Shown here: positions 22,175 through 29,901 of the stretch, in pieces
Numbering within the stretch: the first letter of the stretch is position 1
How the letters are laid out: every line of letters starts with the position of its first letter
Assembly: GCA_017302615.1 (NCBI GenBank)
Contig: JAFLDB010000014.1
Location: 1-64,000, forward strand
DNA from: Sphingomonadales bacterium
GTDB taxonomy: Bacteria; Pseudomonadota; Alphaproteobacteria; Sphingomonadales; Sphingomonadaceae
DNA length: 64,000 bases
Direction of reading: 5' to 3'
The notes under the pieces: generated by a model
Database searches by the model: none
What the model saw: only the letters and a program-made list of their open reading frames with translations
What the model was told of the DNA's origin: nothing
Made by a program: the position numbers and the translations under genes

Positions 22175-25100
22175 TTAGAACTTGATACCCGCGGTCAGGC
22201 CGTAACGGCGCGGCTCGAGGGTGAAGATGTTGGTGTAGTTACCCGAGGACTGGTCGGTCACGTAAAGACCGGTGATCGAGTCCTTGTCGAACAGGTTCTG
22301 CACCCACACGCGGGCAAACCACTTCTTGTCCGGCCCGTCGATCTGGAGCTGAGCGTTCACCTGGGTGTAGCTCGGGATCTCGTTGATCGCGCCGTTGAAG
22401 ATGTTGCCATAGGACTTGCCGGTGTAGATGAAGTCCGCACGCGGGGTCACGGTCAGGTCACCAACGGGCACTTCGTACTGGATGCCGGCGGAGAACTTGT
22501 AGTCCGGTGCGCCGGGCAGCTTGTTGCCCTTGATATTGGTCGGAATACCCGAGGTGTAGACCGTCACGCCGCCGAGCGCCGCCGGGTCGAGACCCGCCGG
22601 GATGAAGGCACCGGCCGCACCCGCCGCCAGAGCTGCGCAAACGCTGAAGGCACCGGTCGAGTTGATCCCCGAACCCGACGGGAAGGCAGTGGTCGGCTGA
22701 AGGCCGGCCCCGGCATTGCCGGTCACCACACCCGCGTTGATCAGGTTGTTCACCCCGTTGACGAAGGCGTTGACCCCCGCAACGTTGCCGGTGTTGGATG
22801 CCACGGCACAGTTTGAAGAATTGGTGATGTCCTTGATGATCACCGCATCGGCCCGGCCCGCGCCAAAGTCACGCGGATTGGAAAGCAGCTTGTCCTGCGA
22901 AACTTCGGTGTGCAGGTAGCTGGCCCCGAAGTTCAGCGTCAGGCCATCGGCCGGACGCAGGATGGCTTCGGCTTCCAGGCCGTAGATCTCGGCGCCCACG
23001 TTGTCGTTGACCGAGGTACGGGCAACGATGCGCGAGAGCTGCAGATCCTTGTAATCATAGTAGAACGCAGTGACGTTCAGGATAATCTTGCCGTTGGCAA
23101 AGCTGTTCTTCGAACCAATTTCGAAGGCATTGACGAATTCCGGAGAAAACGTCGAAGGAACGTTGAATATCGAAGGAATGGGCGGGTTGATCCCGCCGGA
23201 TTTATAACCCCGGGAATAGCTGAAGTAGAGAAGGTTATCGGGCGTGACATTCCAGTCGACGACGAACCTGCCAGTCATCTCGTTGAAAGTCACATTGCTT
23301 GAGGCAAACAGCTCGCAACCGGTGGAGTTGGCAGCGGTCAAAGTGCCCGATGCTGTCGTACCGGTAATGGTGCAGTTCGTCGAACTATCTGCGTCAAAAG
23401 GCTGCAGATAAGAAGATGTTGGCGCCCCAGTGACTGCAAAGCCGTAGATATACGGCGAATTAAACATGTCCGTCGAACCAAATGGCACAAGCGAATTAGC
23501 AAATGTGTTTCGCGCGGAGAACGCCTTCTTGTCATGATTGTAACGCAGCCCCGCCGTGATTTTAAGCGTATCGGTGAGTTTATAGTTCAGCTCACCGAAC
23601 AAGCCGTAAGATTCGAGCCGGAAATCATCACTGTGATTACGGTAGAACGGCGAACCCAGGAAGCCGGGCGGTGGCGGTGTCGCGCCAATTCCGGCAAGCG
23701 GAGCCCGACCCAACGCATTGAAGGCACCGAGTATGCCGGCGGCATAGTCAAGACCGAAGGCATTTACGTAGTAGCTGCTTTCTTCCAAGTGGGCCTTGCC
23801 GTAAATGCCGCCCAGCAGGAAATTGAAAGGGCCATCCCACTTGGAAGAAATGATGGCCTCAGCCGTCCAGCTACTTTGATAGGCATTCGACCGGTCGAAA
23901 TCCTGGGGGGTCATCGAACAGATGCGGTGCCCGCCATATGCCCCGGTATTCGTTTCCTCGGACAAGGACGTGCAAATGACGTTGCCCGGTCCATTGGGGA
24001 TCAGAGCGTTCCGGACAGGCGCAAAATAGGAAACGGGCAGTCCAGGAATACCGGTGGTGCCTGCCGTGTTGAGCGCAGTCAGGCCAGGCAGATAATTTGC
24101 CCGATTCTGCACCGACAGGTTATAGTCCTGCCCCGCATCGACCGAGGTATCCTGCCAATTTCCCTGGACCCTGAGGCTCAACCCGCCACCAAGATCCTGT
24201 TCGATCGCTCCCTGAACGATCCATTCTTCTGCTAAATAATAGGGGGGGTAGTCGGTATTGACCGTTCTGGAATCGGCGGGATTGGCCGCGCCAGGCCACG
24301 AATAGACGTCGGCGCCATAGAGGCTGCCCAGCGCGAAGGCGGTCGGGATGCCCTGCATGGCAAAAAATTCACGCGAAGTGAGCACCGAAGCCAATGTCGT
24401 GTTCGCATTGGTCACCTGGAACTGATTTTTTCCGTTCAGGCAACCCAGCACACCGGTCGGGTCGCGTTGGCACATCTGCTTCTGGATGCGCAGGCGACTA
24501 TCCTTTTCGTGGAAGTACTGGACGACGAGGTCGACCGTCGTGCCCGAACCCGGCTCAAGCCGGATCGAGCCGCGCATGCCCCACATATCGCGATCGTCAA
24601 TCTGTGAATTGTCGAAGATGTTCTTGGTATAACCGTCGCGATTAAGATAGAATCCCGCCACGCGCACGGCTGCAATGTCACCGAGCGGCAGGTTAACCAT
24701 GCCCTTGGCCTTGACGTGGTTGTAGTTGCCGTATTCCAGCTCGGCATTGGCGGAAACGCCGGTCAGGTTGGGACGGGCCGAACGGATGTTGATAACGCCC
24801 GAGGTCGCGTTGCGGCCGAACAGAGTGCCCTGCGGTCCGCGCAGAACTTCGATCTGCGCCAGATCATAGAACTCGCCTTCGAACAGGCGAGTGGCGAACA
24901 GCGGCGCGTCGTTCATGTGGATGGCGGTGGCCTGGTCGCAGGTCACGCCCACGCACAGGTCACCGATCCCGCGGATGGTGAAGCTGGAGCCGGTGAAGTT
25001 CGTCTTGGTGAACGTCACGTTGGGCAGGGACAGCTGAAGGTCAGACGTGTTCTTGATCTGCTGCTTTTCGAGCGCTTCGGTGTTGAAGGCGCTGACCGCG

Positions 25101-25249
25101 ATCGGAACGTCCTGCAGGCGCTGGTTGTTGCGCTGGGCGGTAACGATGATTTCGGTGCTGGCGGTATCTTCTTCAGCGTCCTGCGCATAGGCCGGAACCG
25201 CGAATGCACTGGCGCAGACGCCAGCAAGCAGGGTCAATTTACCCCTCAT
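22175..25249 (-). CDS. TonB-dependent outer-membrane receptor
   Basis: 1024 residues. The signal peptide ends near residue 22 (V-P-A-Y-A-Q-D). A TonB box-like E-I-I-V-T-A-Q-R follows near 34-41, then the plug domain (D-V-P-I-A-V-S-A-F, then I-R-G-I-G and V-L-R-G-P-Q-G-T-L-F-G-R-N-A-T-S-G-V-I-N), then a 22-strand barrel. It ends in a terminal aromatic (Y-G-L-T-A-G-I-K-F), the outer-membrane insertion signal. This is the large receptor type common in sphingomonads; the substrate cannot be told from sequence. An AGGAG ribosome site precedes the start. It diverges from the TIR operon and ends at a hairpin terminator. Confidence 0.95.
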   Translation of the reverse strand: MRGKLTLLAGVCASAFAVPAYAQDAEEDTASTEIIVTAQRNNQRLQDVPIAVSAFNTEALEKQQIKNTSDLQLSLPNVTFTKTNFTGSSFTIRGIGDLCVGVTCDQATAIHMNDAPLFATRLFEGEFYDLAQIEVLRGPQGTLFGRNATSGVINIRSARPNLTGVSANAELEYGNYNHVKAKGMVNLPLGDIAAVRVAGFYLNRDGYTKNIFDNSQIDDRDMWGMRGSIRLEPGSGTTVDLVVQYFHEKDSRLRIQKQMCQRDPTGVLGCLNGKNQFQVTNANTTLASVLTSREFFAMQGIPTAFALGSLYGADVYSWPGAANPADSRTVNTDYPPYYLAEEWIVQGAIEQDLGGGLSLRVQGNWQDTSVDAGQDYNLSVQNRANYLPGLTALNTAGTTGIPGLPVSYFAPVRNALIPNGPGNVICTSLSEETNTGAYGGHRICSMTPQDFDRSNAYQSSWTAEAIISSKWDGPFNFLLGGIYGKAHLEESSYYVNAFGLDYAAGILGAFNALGRAPLAGIGATPPPPGFLGSPFYRNHSDDFRLESYGLFGELNYKLTDTLKITAGLRYNHDKKAFSARNTFANSLVPFGSTDMFNSPYIYGFAVTGAPTSSYLQPFDADSSTNCTITGTTASGTLTAANSTGCELFASSNVTFNEMTGRFVVDWNVTPDNLLYFSYSRGYKSGGINPPIPSIFNVPSTFSPEFVNAFEIGSKNSFANGKIILNVTAFYYDYKDLQLSRIVARTSVNDNVGAEIYGLEAEAILRPADGLTLNFGASYLHTEVSQDKLLSNPRDFGAGRADAVIIKDITNSSNCAVASNTGNVAGVNAFVNGVNNLINAGVVTGNAGAGLQPTTAFPSGSGINSTGAFSVCAALAAGAAGAFIPAGLDPAALGGVTVYTSGIPTNIKGNKLPGAPDYKFSAGIQYEVPVGDLTVTPRADFIYTGKSYGNIFNGAINEIPSYTQVNAQLQIDGPDKKWFARVWVQNLFDKDSITGLYVTDQSSGNYTNIFTLEPRRYGLTAGIKF

Positions 25250-25468: not shown

Positions 25469-27058
25469 ATGGACGATGATTCGACACGGGACACCGTGCC
25501 GCCCTACCGGGCGTTCATCAGCTACAGCCATGCCGACAGCCGGCTTGCCGCGCGGCTCCATAGCGCGCTTGAACGCAGCCGCGACGCCAGCGGAGCAAGG
25601 CTCGCCCCGATCTTCATCGACCGGGCCGAACTGGCCGCCGGGCCGGACCTGTCGGCCCAGGTCCGCCAGGCCTTGGCCCGGTCCGGCGCGCTGATCGTCA
25701 TCGCCAGCCCCGCCGCGCGCGCCAGCCGCTGGGTCGGTCAGGAAATCGCGCTGTTCCGCCAGCTCAATCCCGACCGTCCGGTGCTGGCCGCGCTGGTCGA
25801 TGGAGAGCCCGGGACGGCCTTTCCCGATGGGCTGGTGCGGCTGGGCGATGCGCCGGTCGAACCGCTGGCGGCCGATTTCCGCAAGGGCCGCGACGGCTGG
25901 CGCCTGGGCCTGCTCAAGCTGGTCGCCGGGCTGACCGGGCAGCCGCTCGACCGACTGGTCCAGCGCGATGCCCAGGCCCGGCAGCGCCGCGTGATGGCCG
26001 TCACGGCGGGGGCAGTCCTGCTCAGTCTAGTCCTCGCCGCGCTGCTGGTGGCCGCGATCCGCGCCCGCAACGAGGCCGAACGCCAGCGCGCCGAAGCGGA
26101 AGGACTGGTGGAATTCATGCTGACCGACCTGCGCGACAGACTGAAAGGCGTCGGCCGGCTGGACGTGATGGACGCGGTCAACCGGCGGGTAATGCAGCGC
26201 TATGCCGGTCAGGCCGACCTTTCCGCCCTGCCCAAGGCGGAACTGCTCAGCCGGGCCAAGCTGCTGCAAGCCATGGCGGAAGACGCCCTGTCGTTTCAGG
26301 GTCGCAAGGAGCAGGGTCGCAACGAAGCGCGCGAAGCCTACCGGATCACGGCCTATCTGATCGGCGCCCATCCCGACGACGGCGACGTGATCGCCGCCCA
26401 TGCCCGCAGCGAATACTGGCTGGGCTACGGCCTGTTCATCGACGAAACGCTGCCGGCCGCCGCGCGGCGCGATCGGGTTTCAGCGCACTGGAACCGCAAC
26501 CGCGCCCTCACGGCAAGGCTGGCGCAGATCGATCCGGCCCGCACCGAATGGCGGCTTGAAGCGAGTTATGCCGAAGGCAACCTATGCGCGCTCGAACTGT
26601 CCGAGCCGGCCCGGCCCGGGCTGGCGCTGCCGCACTGTCTGCGGGCCTCCCAGCTTTTGCAGGAGGTCTGGAACAAGCAGCCGGGCGATCTTGAAACCGG
26701 GCTGAACCTGGCCACCAGCCTGGCCTGGCAGGCCGATGCCCGGGCTGCGAGTGACGACCTGCCCGGAGCCCTGGCGCTGCGCCGCCGGCAACTGGCCCTT
26801 GCCGAGGACCTGACCCGCCGCAATCCCGCCGACAAGCGCGTGGCCGAGGCCCGGTTCCTCGCCGGATTTGGCCTCGCCAAGCAGCTCCGTGCAGCCGGAC
26901 GCGAGAGCGAGGCCCGGCGCGAAATGACCGCGGCCCGCACCATCATGGCCGACCTGCGCCGCCGCGATCCGCAGAATGGCGACTGGTCGTCATGGCTCGA
27001 CCAGGCCGACACGTTTCTTGCTTCCGGCAAACAGGCTTCACCATCAGAGAGGAATTGA
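25469..27058 (+). CDS. TIR domain protein with membrane helix and C-terminal helical repeats
   Basis: 529 residues from the ATG at 25469; the longer frame upstream lacks family similarity. Residues about 12-125 are a TIR domain starting A-F-I-S-Y-S-H-A-D, with I-F-I-D-R-A-E-L and the alpha-C segment R-W-V-G-Q-E, where Glu92 occupies the place of the catalytic glutamate of NAD-cleaving TIRs. One transmembrane helix lies at about 175-197, followed by a charged linker (L-V-E-F-M-L-T-D-L-R-D-R-L) and TPR-like helical repeats to the end. TIR would be cytosolic and the repeats on the other side or membrane-proximal. It leads a three-gene unit with the next gene two bases away. Confidence 0.85.
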   Translation: MDDDSTRDTVPPYRAFISYSHADSRLAARLHSALERSRDASGARLAPIFIDRAELAAGPDLSAQVRQALARSGALIVIASPAARASRWVGQEIALFRQLNPDRPVLAALVDGEPGTAFPDGLVRLGDAPVEPLAADFRKGRDGWRLGLLKLVAGLTGQPLDRLVQRDAQARQRRVMAVTAGAVLLSLVLAALLVAAIRARNEAERQRAEAEGLVEFMLTDLRDRLKGVGRLDVMDAVNRRVMQRYAGQADLSALPKAELLSRAKLLQAMAEDALSFQGRKEQGRNEAREAYRITAYLIGAHPDDGDVIAAHARSEYWLGYGLFIDETLPAAARRDRVSAHWNRNRALTARLAQIDPARTEWRLEASYAEGNLCALELSEPARPGLALPHCLRASQLLQEVWNKQPGDLETGLNLATSLAWQADARAASDDLPGALALRRRQLALAEDLTRRNPADKRVAEARFLAGFGLAKQLRAAGRESEARREMTAARTIMADLRRRDPQNGDWSSWLDQADTFLASGKQASPSERN

Positions 27059-27060
27059 CC

Positions 27061-27630
27061 ATGGTTTCGATCACGCATGCGCCCAAACCGAAAAATGACC
27101 GGGCCCAGCCCCGCCGCCCTGCCAGCCTTCCCGCCGCCGACCTTCGCGGCAAGGTCGAATTCGACATGGTTCTCAGCGGCGAGGGCGCGAACCGCAAGCT
27201 GACCTTCGTGCTGACTGCGCTGGACAATCCCGAGCTGGTGGGTCCACAGAAGGGCAAGGGTGCCTATCTGCGCGTCCCCGAAGGCAAAACGGTCGAGATC
27301 GAACTGCTCCTGAGCGAGGCGTGGGATTGGGAATATTCCGACACGGACGACGATTTCACCCTGGCGGCCGCCGGCCATTCCGGTCGCTATCACGTGAAAC
27401 GCGGCAGCAATGACAAGCGCAGCCGGATTGTGGTCATCGAGCCATCGGGCGGAGCGCCGGAAACGGAAATCACCAGCGTCAAGCACGACGAGAAGTTCAA
27501 CCTCGGCGTCCGGCTCGCGCAGGACAATGGCGGCGCACCGGTGGGAATCGAGATCGATCCGATCGTCAAGAACCCGCCGCCGGTCGGCGGCCTGATCGGG
27601 ACCCAGAACCAGTCCTCGCCGCTGCTCTGA
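27061..27630 (+). CDS. Small unknown protein of the TIR module
   Basis: 189 residues, ATG two bases after the TIR gene stop, with AGAGAGGAA just upstream. No signal peptide or membrane helix. The sequence is beta-rich with a charged centre (W-D-W-E-Y-S-D-T-D-D-D) and a Pro/Gly-rich tail. I recognise no family. The tight spacing on both sides (4 bases before the next gene) indicates that the three products act together, possibly as adaptor or substrate-binding component; that role is inference. Confidence 0.75.
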   Translation: MVSITHAPKPKNDRAQPRRPASLPAADLRGKVEFDMVLSGEGANRKLTFVLTALDNPELVGPQKGKGAYLRVPEGKTVEIELLLSEAWDWEYSDTDDDFTLAAAGHSGRYHVKRGSNDKRSRIVVIEPSGGAPETEITSVKHDEKFNLGVRLAQDNGGAPVGIEIDPIVKNPPPVGGLIGTQNQSSPLL

Positions 27631-27634
27631 CCGG

Positions 27635-29239
27635 ATGACCGCCCCCACTCTCCCCATGATCGCTGCGCTGGTCCGGGCCGGCGCGGTCGATCGGGCGGCC
27701 GAGCTGTTTGCCGCCACCGGATATGACCGCGCCAGCGGCAATCCGGCGGCGCTGGCCCTGGCCGGACGGATTGCCAAGGCGCAGGCGCGGCTGGCTTCGG
27801 GAGCAGCGCGAGCCGCGCGCTTCGCCGAAGCCGCGGCCGCCTACAGCGCCGCGCACGGGCTGGCCCCGGCACCCTATCTGGCCATCAATGCCGCAACCCT
27901 GAACCTGCTGGCGGGCGATGATGCCGCCGCCGCAGCGGGCGGGCGCGACGTGCTGGCACTGCTGGATAGCCCGGATCAGCCTGCCGACACACCTTATTAT
28001 CTGGCCGCAACCCGGGCCGAGGCCCTGCTGCTGCTGGGCGACCAGGCCGGGGCCGCAGCGGCCATGCGCGAAGCCGTGCGCCACGATCCCGATGGCTGGG
28101 ACGACCGTGCCATCACGCTGGCCCAGCTGCGCGAGATCCTGGCCGCCCGGGGCGAGAACAGCACCTGGCTGGAATCCTTCGCCCCGCCCGCCAGCCTGCA
28201 CTTTGCCGGGCACATGGGCATCCGGGCCGGCGGCAGCAGCGAAGCGGTCCTGGCGCAAGCGCTGGATCGCTGGCTGGCCGGGCAGCAGATCGGCTTTGCC
28301 TGGGGCGCGCTGGCGGCCGGAGCCGACGTGGTCATTGCCGAGCGCCTGTTGGCGGCCGGCTGCGCGCTGCACGTGGTCCTGCCCTGCCCGCCCGAGCGGT
28401 TCGAGGCGCAATCGGTCGCCCCGGCCGGGGCGGCGTGGACGGACCGTTACCGCGCCGTCATGGCCCAGGCCGCCTCGGTCCGCTGCGCCGGAACCATGTC
28501 CGTTTCGGTCCATGATCCGCTGGCCACGGCCTTTGCCGGGGAACTGGCAATCGGCGCGGCCATGCTGAACGCCGCCCGTCTGGGCAGCGCGGCACGGCAG
28601 CTGATCGTGCTGGACGAGGCCGGCGGCGGCCCCAACACCGCCCGGCAGGCCGAATTGTGGCACGGCGCGGCAGACAGCCGCCAGGTCCTGAACGTGCCGC
28701 GCGATGCCGCAGTGGAAGCGCTGTTTCCGCCCGAAGCACCGGACCTGGCCCGTCACCTGCTGTTCCATGCCGCGATTGCCTTTCCGGGCGATCCCGCCAG
28801 CCTGTCTTCGGCCAAACTGGGCGACCGGGCTGCCCTGGTTGGCATGGCCCTGGCCAGCTTGCCGCAAGGTTCGGTCCGGGCCGGACCGCACGGGTGGGAC
28901 GTGGCGACGCCCGATGTCGGTGCGGGCCTTTTCGCGACCCTTGCCGTCATGGACATGTGCCGCGCTGCCGGAATGGAACCGCCCGCAGCGGGCACCGATC
29001 TGGCGCTGGGCCTGCTGGTTCCCGATCTCGCCAGCGGCAGCCTGGTGGCGCACGGACCGGGCAGCGAACTGGCGCAGCGGCTGGCGGCCCATGCGCCGCC
29101 GGGACTGGTGCTGGCCAGCGATCCGCTGTCGGTCGCGCTGGCGGTCAGACAGCCAGGCCAGCTGCGGACCGAGCCATGGCTGCCGGACGAACCGGACCTT
29201 GGCGGCGCGGTTCACGCCGTCTTCGCGCAGGGTCAGTAA
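27635..29239 (+). CDS. TPR-SLOG-like protein with inactive class III cyclase-like domain
   Basis: 534 residues. Residues 1-180 are Ala-rich helical repeats resembling TRAFs-binding/TPR regions. Residues about 187-325 look like a SLOG/Rossmann nucleotide-sensor domain: H-F-A-G-H-M, then G-F-A-W-G-A-L-A-A-G-A-D-V-V-I-A-E, then A-L-H-V-V-L-P-C-P. Residues about 373-530 follow the class III nucleotide-cyclase layout, but the metal aspartates are lost: F-H-A-A-I-A-F replaces F-A-D-I-x-G-F, P-H-G replaces G-D-G, and E-L-A-Q-R replaces N-x-A-A-R. The C-terminal L-V-L-A-S-D-P matches the cyclase V-L-V-S. It is the last gene of the TIR unit and its stop overlaps that of the Crp/Fnr gene. Confidence 0.75.
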   Translation: MTAPTLPMIAALVRAGAVDRAAELFAATGYDRASGNPAALALAGRIAKAQARLASGAARAARFAEAAAAYSAAHGLAPAPYLAINAATLNLLAGDDAAAAAGGRDVLALLDSPDQPADTPYYLAATRAEALLLLGDQAGAAAAMREAVRHDPDGWDDRAITLAQLREILAARGENSTWLESFAPPASLHFAGHMGIRAGGSSEAVLAQALDRWLAGQQIGFAWGALAAGADVVIAERLLAAGCALHVVLPCPPERFEAQSVAPAGAAWTDRYRAVMAQAASVRCAGTMSVSVHDPLATAFAGELAIGAAMLNAARLGSAARQLIVLDEAGGGPNTARQAELWHGAADSRQVLNVPRDAAVEALFPPEAPDLARHLLFHAAIAFPGDPASLSSAKLGDRAALVGMALASLPQGSVRAGPHGWDVATPDVGAGLFATLAVMDMCRAAGMEPPAAGTDLALGLLVPDLASGSLVAHGPGSELAQRLAAHAPPGLVLASDPLSVALAVRQPGQLRTEPWLPDEPDLGGAVHAVFAQGQ

Positions 29240-29901
29240 ACCAGCTCTTCCAGCCGGTGCGGTGCGACCACTTCCAGCCCGCCGTCGACGCGCTTGACCA
29301 GACCGCGCTTTTCCCACCCGGAAATGGTCCGCGATACGGTCTCGCGAGTCGATTGCACGGTCATGGCCAGTTCGGCAAAGACCGGCATCGGCCGGATCAC
29401 CCGGTCCGGCCCGGCGCGCGAGCGGCGCAGCAGTTCCGCCGCGATCCGCCCGGTGGCGGACAGCATCGCCGCTTCGACCATGCGCTGGCGCATCGCGGCC
29501 AGCCGCCCGGCCAGGTGCCGGGTGATCGCCACGCCAACGCAGCTATAGCTTTCCATCAACCGGATCACCGCGGCGCCGGAAAAGTGCGCCGCCGCGCCCT
29601 CGCTCAGGGACTCGACCCGCGCCGCATCGGCATCGGGGGCCACCAGCGCCCCATAGAAATCGCCCGGTGCGATTGGCAGCAGCACCAGCATCGCCCCGTC
29701 GCGGCCATAGGCCACTTCCTGCGCGGCTCCGGCGGTCAGCAGCGAGGTCTCGTCGCGGTCGGGCAGCGGCCACAGCAGCGCGCCGCGCTCGTGCGCCGAT
29801 CCGCGCGCCATCGCGGCGATGGTGCCGGCCAGGGCCTGGCCACAGCCAAAGGCGGCGCGGATCGCAGCCAGATCGGTATCGTGGCTTGGAGGTTCGCCCA
29901 T
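29233..29901 (-). CDS. Crp/Fnr-family transcription regulator
   Basis: 222 residues. The C-terminal helix-turn-helix is a standard Crp type (A-E-L-A-M-T-V-Q-S-T-R-E-T-V-S-R-T-I), preceded by the dimerisation helix (R-Q-R-M-V-E-A-A-M-L-S-A-T-G-R-I-A). The N-terminal sensor domain has the beta-roll length, but I see neither the cAMP-contact P-G-E-x-x-x-R-x-A motif nor an FNR-type cysteine cluster, so the ligand is unknown. It is convergent with the TIR/cyclase-like unit and overlaps its last gene by seven bases, a physical linkage that may be functional. Confidence 0.85.
   Translation of the reverse strand: MGEPPSHDTDLAAIRAAFGCGQALAGTIAAMARGSAHERGALLWPLPDRDETSLLTAGAAQEVAYGRDGAMLVLLPIAPGDFYGALVAPDADAARVESLSEGAAAHFSGAAVIRLMESYSCVGVAITRHLAGRLAAMRQRMVEAAMLSATGRIAAELLRRSRAGPDRVIRPMPVFAELAMTVQSTRETVSRTISGWEKRGLVKRVDGGLEVVAPHRLEELVY

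What the first reader, a model, noticed from the sequence alone, without database searches (positions are those of the whole stretch)
25469..29239. TIR-membrane protein, small unknown and TPR/SLOG/pseudo-cyclase protein in one operon
Three genes are separated by two and four bases. The first is a TIR domain that keeps the glutamate (Glu92) of NAD-cleaving TIRs, fused to a membrane helix and helical repeats. The third combines TRAFs-binding/TPR-like helices, a Rossmann region resembling SLOG nucleotide sensors and a region with the class III cyclase layout but without the metal aspartates. TIR, SLOG and cyclase-type domains are known parts of nucleotide-based immunity (Thoeris, CBASS, Pycsar). 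The combination of a membrane TIR with a SLOG-plus-pseudocyclase partner is not one I recognise and could be a signalling or defence system in which the dead cyclase senses a nucleotide.
Basis: partly seen in the sequence, partly recalled or inferred. Interest (0 to 1): 0.75.

Follow-up and report, generated by a model that had tools for sequence, protein, structure and literature searches.

The report
Membrane TIR receptor with SLOG-pseudocyclase partner
A three-gene bacterial operon pairs a membrane-bound NAD-cutting-type TIR protein with a fast-changing small partner and a nucleotide-sensor protein carrying a dead cyclase, which looks like an immune or stress signalling relay whose parts were named before but whose small protein is probably not the nucleotide-making enzyme it is filed as.

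Summary
Gene 1: TIR (Glu92 invariant in 28/28 relatives), one membrane helix, helical repeats. Gene 3: TPR-S helices, a SLOG domain (YpsA, Z 16.5), a class III cyclase fold (Rv1900c, Z 19.8) without the catalytic residues. Relatives outside one sphingomonad clade keep those residues; the tree needs one loss. A convergent CRP-like regulator belongs to the module: its cNMP-binding residues are kept in 6/6 loci with an intact cyclase and lost in 19/19 with a dead one, a single joint loss.

Gene 2 belongs to Pfam pNTSase1 ('predicted novel nucleotide synthetase'), a family found here only in this operon. Its model is a beta sandwich like the self-cleaving DP-EP protein SO1698. Both families have an invariant C-terminal DPxxxN, and DP-EP genes follow STAND-type proteins bearing gene 1's repeat region in 12/12 loci. 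Gene 1's repeats and gene 2 diversify, and were apparently swapped, as one cassette.

Best reading: a Thoeris-like relay (TIR product read by SLOG) with a diversifying sensor cassette. Defence is inferred; neighbours show no defence islands. TPR-S and pNTSase1 were named earlier, so this is a new variant of a known kind.

The parts
25469..27058 (+). Gene 1 (529 aa): TIR domain (residues ~12-166), one TM helix (179-197), helical repeat region (~200-520)
   Evidence: TIR_2 PF13676 E 6e-13, ThsB_TIR PF08937 E 1e-6; hydropathy; 28-member alignment
25742..25744 (+). Codon of TIR Glu92, the residue that is catalytic in NAD-cleaving TIRs
   Evidence: Invariant in 28/28 relatives; position confirmed
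26066..27028 (+). Helical repeat region of gene 1; evolves and is exchanged together with gene 2; homologous to the C-terminal part of wHTH-nSTAND1-type proteins that precede DP-EP genes
   Evidence: E 1e-46 to 1e-54 at DP-EP loci; partial Mantel r 0.72, p 0.0002
27061..27630 (+). Gene 2 (189 aa): pNTSase1 (PF20301) family protein, predicted all-beta sandwich resembling SO1698/DP-EP and PixA
   Evidence: PF20301 full-length weak hit 16.1 bits, relatives up to E 1e-65; model pLDDT 82; Z 9.4 to 3nji
27556..27573 (+). C-terminal D166-P167-x-x-x-N171 motif of gene 2, at the position of the Asp116-Pro117 pair of SO1698
   Evidence: Motif in 24/24 relatives and 13/13 DP-EP proteins; the 22 hits of the stricter form DPx[IVLMT]xN among 1325 ORFs are all gene-2 ORFs; structural end positions
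27635..29239 (+). Gene 3 (534 aa): TPR-S helices, SLOG domain, catalytically degenerate class III cyclase domain
   Evidence: PF20308 30.4 bits, 38/38 relatives; model m3422c10ff65a
28184..28699 (+). SLOG domain of gene 3 (residues 184-355) with GxD signature G229-A-D231
   Evidence: YpsA 2nx2 Z 16.5, rmsd 2.5, 152 residues; G229 invariant, D231 at least 90%; signature from PMC6459960
28742..29236 (+). Pseudo-cyclase domain of gene 3 (residues ~370-534)
   Evidence: Rv1900c 1ybu Z 19.8, rmsd 2.3, 154 residues; catalytic motifs absent here, present in relatives
29233..29901 (-). Convergent CRP/FNR-like regulator (222 aa) that accompanies the operon; cNMP-binding residues lost
   Evidence: HTH_Crp_2 E 5e-10; homologue near the operon across loci whose outer flanks differ; residue table

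Best explanation
A membrane-anchored TIR receptor relay. (1) Gene 1 is an NADase-type TIR tethered by one TM helix to a helical-repeat sensor. (2) Gene 2 is a small beta-sandwich partner matched to that sensor; its C-terminal Asp-Pro may be an autocleavage site, so it may act as gate, ligand or timer rather than as a nucleotide synthetase. (3) When the sensor pair is triggered, the TIR converts NAD+ to an ADP-ribose-type signal. (4) The SLOG domain of gene 3 binds that signal, as the SLOG of ThsA does in Thoeris. (5) In most relatives gene 3 then makes a cyclic nucleotide, which the CRP partner reads where there is one; in this sphingomonad clade both the cyclase active site and the cNMP pocket of the CRP partner are gone, so the output is probably a conformational one, through the pseudo-cyclase or protein contacts. 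Shown computationally: domains, folds, motifs, the single joint loss, and co-diversification of repeats with gene 2. Inferred: steps 2-5 as biochemistry, and a role in conflict with phages.
For: TIR Glu92 invariant. SLOG and cyclase folds at high confidence with the GxD signature. Operon conserved across families. Intact cyclase motifs in 32/54 members, lost in one clade of 22 (support 100/100, one change). CRP partner keeps E/R/S-T in every intact-cyclase locus examined (5/5, plus L065 read) and in 0/19 dead-cyclase loci. Gene 2: beta sandwich like SO1698, DPxxxN shared with DP-EP, and DP-EP genes directly follow proteins with gene 1's repeat region in 12/12 loci. Gene 2 and repeat similarity correlate after controlling for TIR, SLOG and TPR (r 0.72, p 0.0002) while other domains do not. 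Sister loci L042/L048: TIR 90%, SLOG 89%, repeats 44%, gene 2 25%. Purifying selection on gene 3, pseudo-cyclase included (dN/dS 0.15-0.30). Thoeris precedent for TIR product to SLOG: PMC10022894.
Against: No defence islands: 1 of 83 neighbouring ORFs matched PADLOC at 1e-15; no phage copy and only a partial plasmid match. The joint loss of cyclase and CRP residues is one event on the tree, so it is not replicated. The sequence link between gene 2 and DP-EP is weak (hhalign P 0.01, probability 4%) and no gene-2 relative hits PF08985. The residues mutated in SO1698 (Asp37, Lys98) vary even inside the DP-EP alignment, so cleavage by gene 2 is unproven. If the repeats lie outside the membrane, as the charge pattern mildly suggests, a cytosolic gene 2 could not meet them after insertion.
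Confidence: 0.5

Rival explanations
1. Predicted NAD-nucleotide conflict system as the Pfam names imply: gene 2 is a nucleotide synthetase that makes a messenger sensed by TPR-S, with TIR as effector.
For: Gene 2 relatives match PF20301 'predicted novel nucleotide synthetase' and the family occurs only in this operon in the genomes searched.
Against: The model of gene 2 is an all-beta sandwich with SO1698 and PixA as nearest solved folds. Its invariant residues are D, P, N at the C-terminus plus a Leu, not a set of acidic or basic catalytic residues. It varies far more than an enzyme in a conserved relay would be expected to (25% identity between loci that are about 90% identical elsewhere).
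Confidence: 0.12
2. A stress or envelope-signalling regulator rather than a phage defence: a membrane sensor drives a SLOG/cyclase/CRP circuit for physiology.
For: Chromosomal, ordinary neighbours; conserved CRP-type regulator; a homologous TonB receptor lies divergently upstream in most close relatives; the same repeat region occurs on wHTH-STAND proteins, so its output can be transcriptional.
Against: Patchy presence (17 of 41 relatives), cassette-like exchange of the repeat region with gene 2, and recurrence of the repeat region in TIR-STAND and DUF4062-like proteins fit conflict systems better.
Confidence: 0.3
3. Gene 3 has lost signalling function and the clade carries a decaying remnant.
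For: The cyclase catalytic residues and the CRP cNMP residues are gone in the clade.
Against: Full-length open frames in all 22 members, well-folded model (pLDDT about 90 in the pseudo-cyclase), dN/dS 0.15-0.30 over the pseudo-cyclase.
Confidence: 0.05

Closest known systems
Predicted TPR-S / pNTSase1 conflict systems (Burroughs and Aravind 2020, recalled, paper not held)
   Same: Gene 3 carries TPR-S over the Pfam cut-off; gene 2 belongs to pNTSase1, a family confined here to TIR / gene 2 / TPR-S operons.
   Different: Added here: YpsA-type SLOG plus class III cyclase in the same chain, a CRP partner with joint loss of cNMP residues, a beta-sandwich fold for pNTSase1, and repeat/gene-2 cassette exchange. 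I could not check how much of this the paper already states.
Thoeris (ThsB TIR signals to ThsA SLOG-SIR2)
   Same: TIR with catalytic Glu next to a SLOG protein; ThsB_TIR profile hits gene 1.
   Different: No SIR2 domain or membrane effector fused to the SLOG; the TIR is membrane-bound with a repeat sensor; the SLOG is fused to TPR-S and a (pseudo)cyclase.
Pycsar (class III pyrimidine cyclase plus cNMP-gated TIR or TM effector)
   Same: Class III cyclase fold and TIR in one operon.
   Different: The cyclase is dead here; gene 1 has no cNMP-binding domain; the cNMP-fold partner is a CRP-type regulator.
wHTH-nSTAND1 / DP-EP gene pairs (SO1698 family, PF08985)
   Same: Homologous repeat region in the upstream protein, small beta-sandwich gene directly downstream, C-terminal DPxxxN.
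   Different: The N-terminal part is wHTH-STAND, not TIR; no TPR-S gene; gene 2 does not hit the DP-EP model.

Membership tests
TPR-S (PF20308) | Match to the Pfam model over its gathering score | tested here: met
   30.4 bits, cut-off 27.6; 38/38 relatives at E up to 0.1
pNTSase1 (PF20301) | Match to the Pfam model over its gathering score | tested here: inconclusive
   Window protein 16.1 bits, cut-off 25, but full-length; 22 of 24 aligned members match at E up to 1, best 1e-65
pNTSase1 as a nucleotide synthetase | Nucleotide-forming activity | not testable with these tools
SLOG superfamily (YpsA clade) | SLOG-type Rossmann fold | tested here: met
   2nx2 YpsA Z 16.5, rmsd 2.5, 152 residues
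SLOG superfamily (YpsA clade) | GxD/E substrate-binding signature (PMC6459960) | tested here: met
   G229-A-D231; G229 invariant, D231 at least 90% in 38 members; signature described. Residue-level superposition on YpsA G53/E55 was not available
Class III nucleotidyl cyclase (active enzyme) | Two metal Asp and catalytic Arg | tested here: not met
   Absent in the window protein, present in relatives; fold itself present
NADase-type TIR | TIR domain with catalytic Glu | tested here: met
   TIR_2 over cut-off; Glu92 invariant in 28/28
NADase-type TIR | NAD+ cleavage | not testable with these tools
   Needs assay
Thoeris | ThsA partner (SIR2-SLOG, or type II/III partner) | tested here: not met
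   Neither partner gene matches a ThsA model in PADLOC or NCBIfam; the gene 1 hit to ThcB4 is 28 bits against a cut-off of 220
CBASS | CD-NTase gene in the operon | tested here: not met
   No CD-NTase hit in genes 1-3
Pycsar | Catalytic PycC cyclase and cNMP-binding effector | tested here: not met
   Cyclase residues absent; no cNMP-binding domain in gene 1
DP-EP (PF08985) | Match to the Pfam model | tested here: not met
   No PF08985 hit in 24 gene-2 family members at E up to 1
DP-EP (PF08985) | C-terminal Asp-Pro at the self-cleavage position | tested here: met
   D166-P167 invariant; VIA end positions put 166-167 within one residue of SO1698 116-117
DP-EP (PF08985) | Autocleavage | not testable with these tools
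   Needs expression and mass spectrometry

The most novel reading that the evidence does not exclude
pNTSase1 and DP-EP proteins form one class of small, C-terminally self-cleaving beta-sandwich partners, each matched to the diversifying repeat sensor of a membrane receptor. The same sensor cassette is plugged into TIR or wHTH-STAND output domains, and in the TIR version the signal passes through SLOG to a cyclase and a CRP regulator, a two-messenger relay later lost in sphingomonads.
Probability: 0.35. Interest if true: 0.8.

Novelty: new variant of a known kind. Interest (0 to 1): 0.62.

Why it matters
If right, it corrects the predicted function of a named Pfam family (pNTSase1), gives the DP-EP self-cleaving proteins a first biological context, and shows a TIR-to-SLOG logic wired to a cyclase and CRP regulator instead of a suicide NADase. 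It also offers clear bench tests: cleavage at one Asp-Pro bond, binding of the matched repeat region, and gene 3 binding of TIR products.

Tried and rejected
CBASS, Pycsar and Thoeris membership: not met. Plasmid or phage carriage: one partial plasmid hit, none in phages. Defence-island context: 1 PADLOC hit among 83 neighbouring ORFs; gene calls there were naive longest ORFs, so some are spurious. Simple identity correlation of gene 2 with the repeats was not significant (rho 0.21, p 0.16, 10 loci), probably because identities near 25-30% saturate; alignment-score matrices with a partial Mantel test on 16 loci gave r 0.72, p 0.0002. This was a second analysis after a null first one and should be weighed so. 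Searching solved structures by sequence with the gene 2 profile gave only designed Ig-like proteins. Literature: the source papers for TPR-S/pNTSase1 and for SO1698 are not held; term searches found nothing on pNTSase. The match list for gene 3 is filled mainly by the cyclase domain, so absence of other families there means nothing.
Full report
Observation. The window (own contig G000:C6; closest named relatives are Novosphingobium and other Sphingomonadaceae) holds three tightly packed genes: 25469-27058, 27061-27630, 27635-29239, with gaps of 2 and 4 bases. Gene 1 matches TIR_2 over its cut-off and ThsB_TIR. Glu92 lies at the expected place and is invariant in 28 relatives. One hydrophobic helix spans residues 179-197, with more net positive charge before it than after it, which mildly suggests the TIR side is cytoplasmic. 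Gene 3 matches TPR-S over its cut-off; 38 of 38 relatives also match, and 16 of 38 match the adenylate/guanylate cyclase model.

Structure of gene 3. The AlphaFold model is confident (pLDDT 93.2, pTM 0.91). Residues 184-355 align to YpsA, a SLOG protein (Z 16.5, rmsd 2.5 A, 152 residues; YpsA as SLOG, PMC6459960). The YpsA GxD/E signature appears as G229-A-D231. Residues 371-532 align to class III cyclases (Rv1900c, Z 19.8, rmsd 2.3 A, 154 residues).

The cyclase died once. The Asp, Gly-Asp and Arg motifs are present in 32 of 54 family members across Alphaproteobacteria and beyond, and absent in 22. On a tree of the TPR and SLOG columns only, the 22 form one side of a branch with 100/100 support, nested in the others, and one change is enough. 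The pseudo-cyclase is still under purifying selection (dN/dS 0.15-0.30).

A fourth gene. A CRP-like regulator (29233-29901, minus strand) converges on gene 3. Homologues lie near the operon in loci whose outer flanks differ, including loci from other families. Residues matching CRP Glu72, Arg82 and Ser83 are kept (Ser or Thr) in all five intact-cyclase loci and in a sixth, L065, read from the sequence printed. None of 19 dead-cyclase loci keeps them together. Because both losses fall on one branch, this is one joint event, not a replicated correlation. It fits a circuit in which the cyclase product was read by the CRP partner.

Gene 2. It matches PF20301, pNTSase1, weakly (16.1 bits) but over its full length, and relatives match strongly. 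In 298 genomes of the family PF20301 hit 17; 16 lie between a gene-1 and a gene-3 relative, and the last (L088) showed only the gene-1 relative in the stretch held. The Pfam name predicts a nucleotide synthetase. The model is instead a beta sandwich (pLDDT 82, pTM 0.78). Best solved matches are SO1698 (Z up to 9.4) and, slightly lower, PixA and MakC/MakD. Z near 9 is modest, so I looked for independent support. SO1698 is filed in the PDB as an aspartic peptidase, and PMC11655445 describes the DUF1888 protein of Shewanella oneidensis as a self-cleaving endopeptidase; from memory it cleaves Asp116-Pro117. Gene 2 has an invariant D166-P167 and N171; the DP-EP family has invariant D116, P117 and N121 with the same spacing. 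Across 1325 ORFs of 100-320 aa from the fetched loci L036-L077, 22 end with DPx[IVLMT]xN in the last 45 residues, and all 22 are the gene between gene 1 and gene 3. The profile-profile comparison is weak (P 0.01, probability 4%) but aligns the motif. No gene-2 protein hits the DP-EP model, so I do not file it as a DP-EP member.

Shared partner. DP-EP genes of a gammaproteobacterial family (14 genomes with a hit) lie directly downstream of proteins whose C-terminal part matches gene 1's repeat region at E 1e-46 to 1e-54, in 12 of 12 loci where that gene was recovered. In one locus read in full the upstream protein is wHTH-nSTAND1. The repeat region is also found in long proteins that begin like TIR and DUF4062 domains.

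Cassette exchange. Two sister loci, L042 and L048, share 90% of the TIR, 81% of the TPR part, 89% of SLOG and 83% of the pseudo-cyclase, but only 44% of the repeat region and 25% of gene 2. Identity along gene 1 drops sharply after the membrane helix. Over 16 loci, gene 2 similarity follows repeat similarity after removing the TIR, SLOG and TPR signal (partial Mantel r 0.72, p 0.0002), and no other domain shows this. A first, simpler correlation on 10 loci was not significant; I report both. The result fits a matched sensor pair that is exchanged as a unit.

Mechanism. The best reading is a receptor relay: repeat sensor plus gene 2 gate the TIR; the TIR product is read by SLOG as in Thoeris (PMC10022894); gene 3 passes the signal on, through cNMP and CRP in intact relatives and by other means here. 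The link to phage defence is by analogy only. Neighbours are ordinary genes, and there are no phage copies.

Novelty. TPR-S and pNTSase1 are earlier names, and the operon type was probably covered by the 2020 survey that I could not read. New here, as far as I can tell, are the SLOG-cyclase assignment with its single loss, the joint CRP loss, the beta-sandwich and DP motif of gene 2, and the cassette exchange.

Noticed in passing
22175-25249 (-): A TonB-dependent receptor gene diverges from the operon; close homologues occupy the same place in most Novosphingobium-type relatives.
   Followed up: partly
L147 / L157 (G1069:C35:214350-215621): Two DP-EP genes in tandem, one behind the other, downstream of a repeat-region protein.
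   Followed up: no
L040 / L047 between gene 1 and gene 3: An 838-base gap with no long same-strand ORF where gene 2 is expected; either lost, frameshifted or an assembly error.
   Followed up: no
L063:7293-7967: The middle gene lacks the DPxxxN ending and is dissimilar to other gene 2 proteins, perhaps a replacement.
   Followed up: no
L058, L060: TIR gene directly overlaps the gene 3 relative with no middle gene and an intact cyclase; L070 has a TIR-like protein with WD40 repeats nearby instead.
   Followed up: partly
L069, L127, L128: CRP gene directly upstream of and overlapping a gene 3 relative with intact cyclase, with no gene-1 relative detected in the stretch held.
   Followed up: partly
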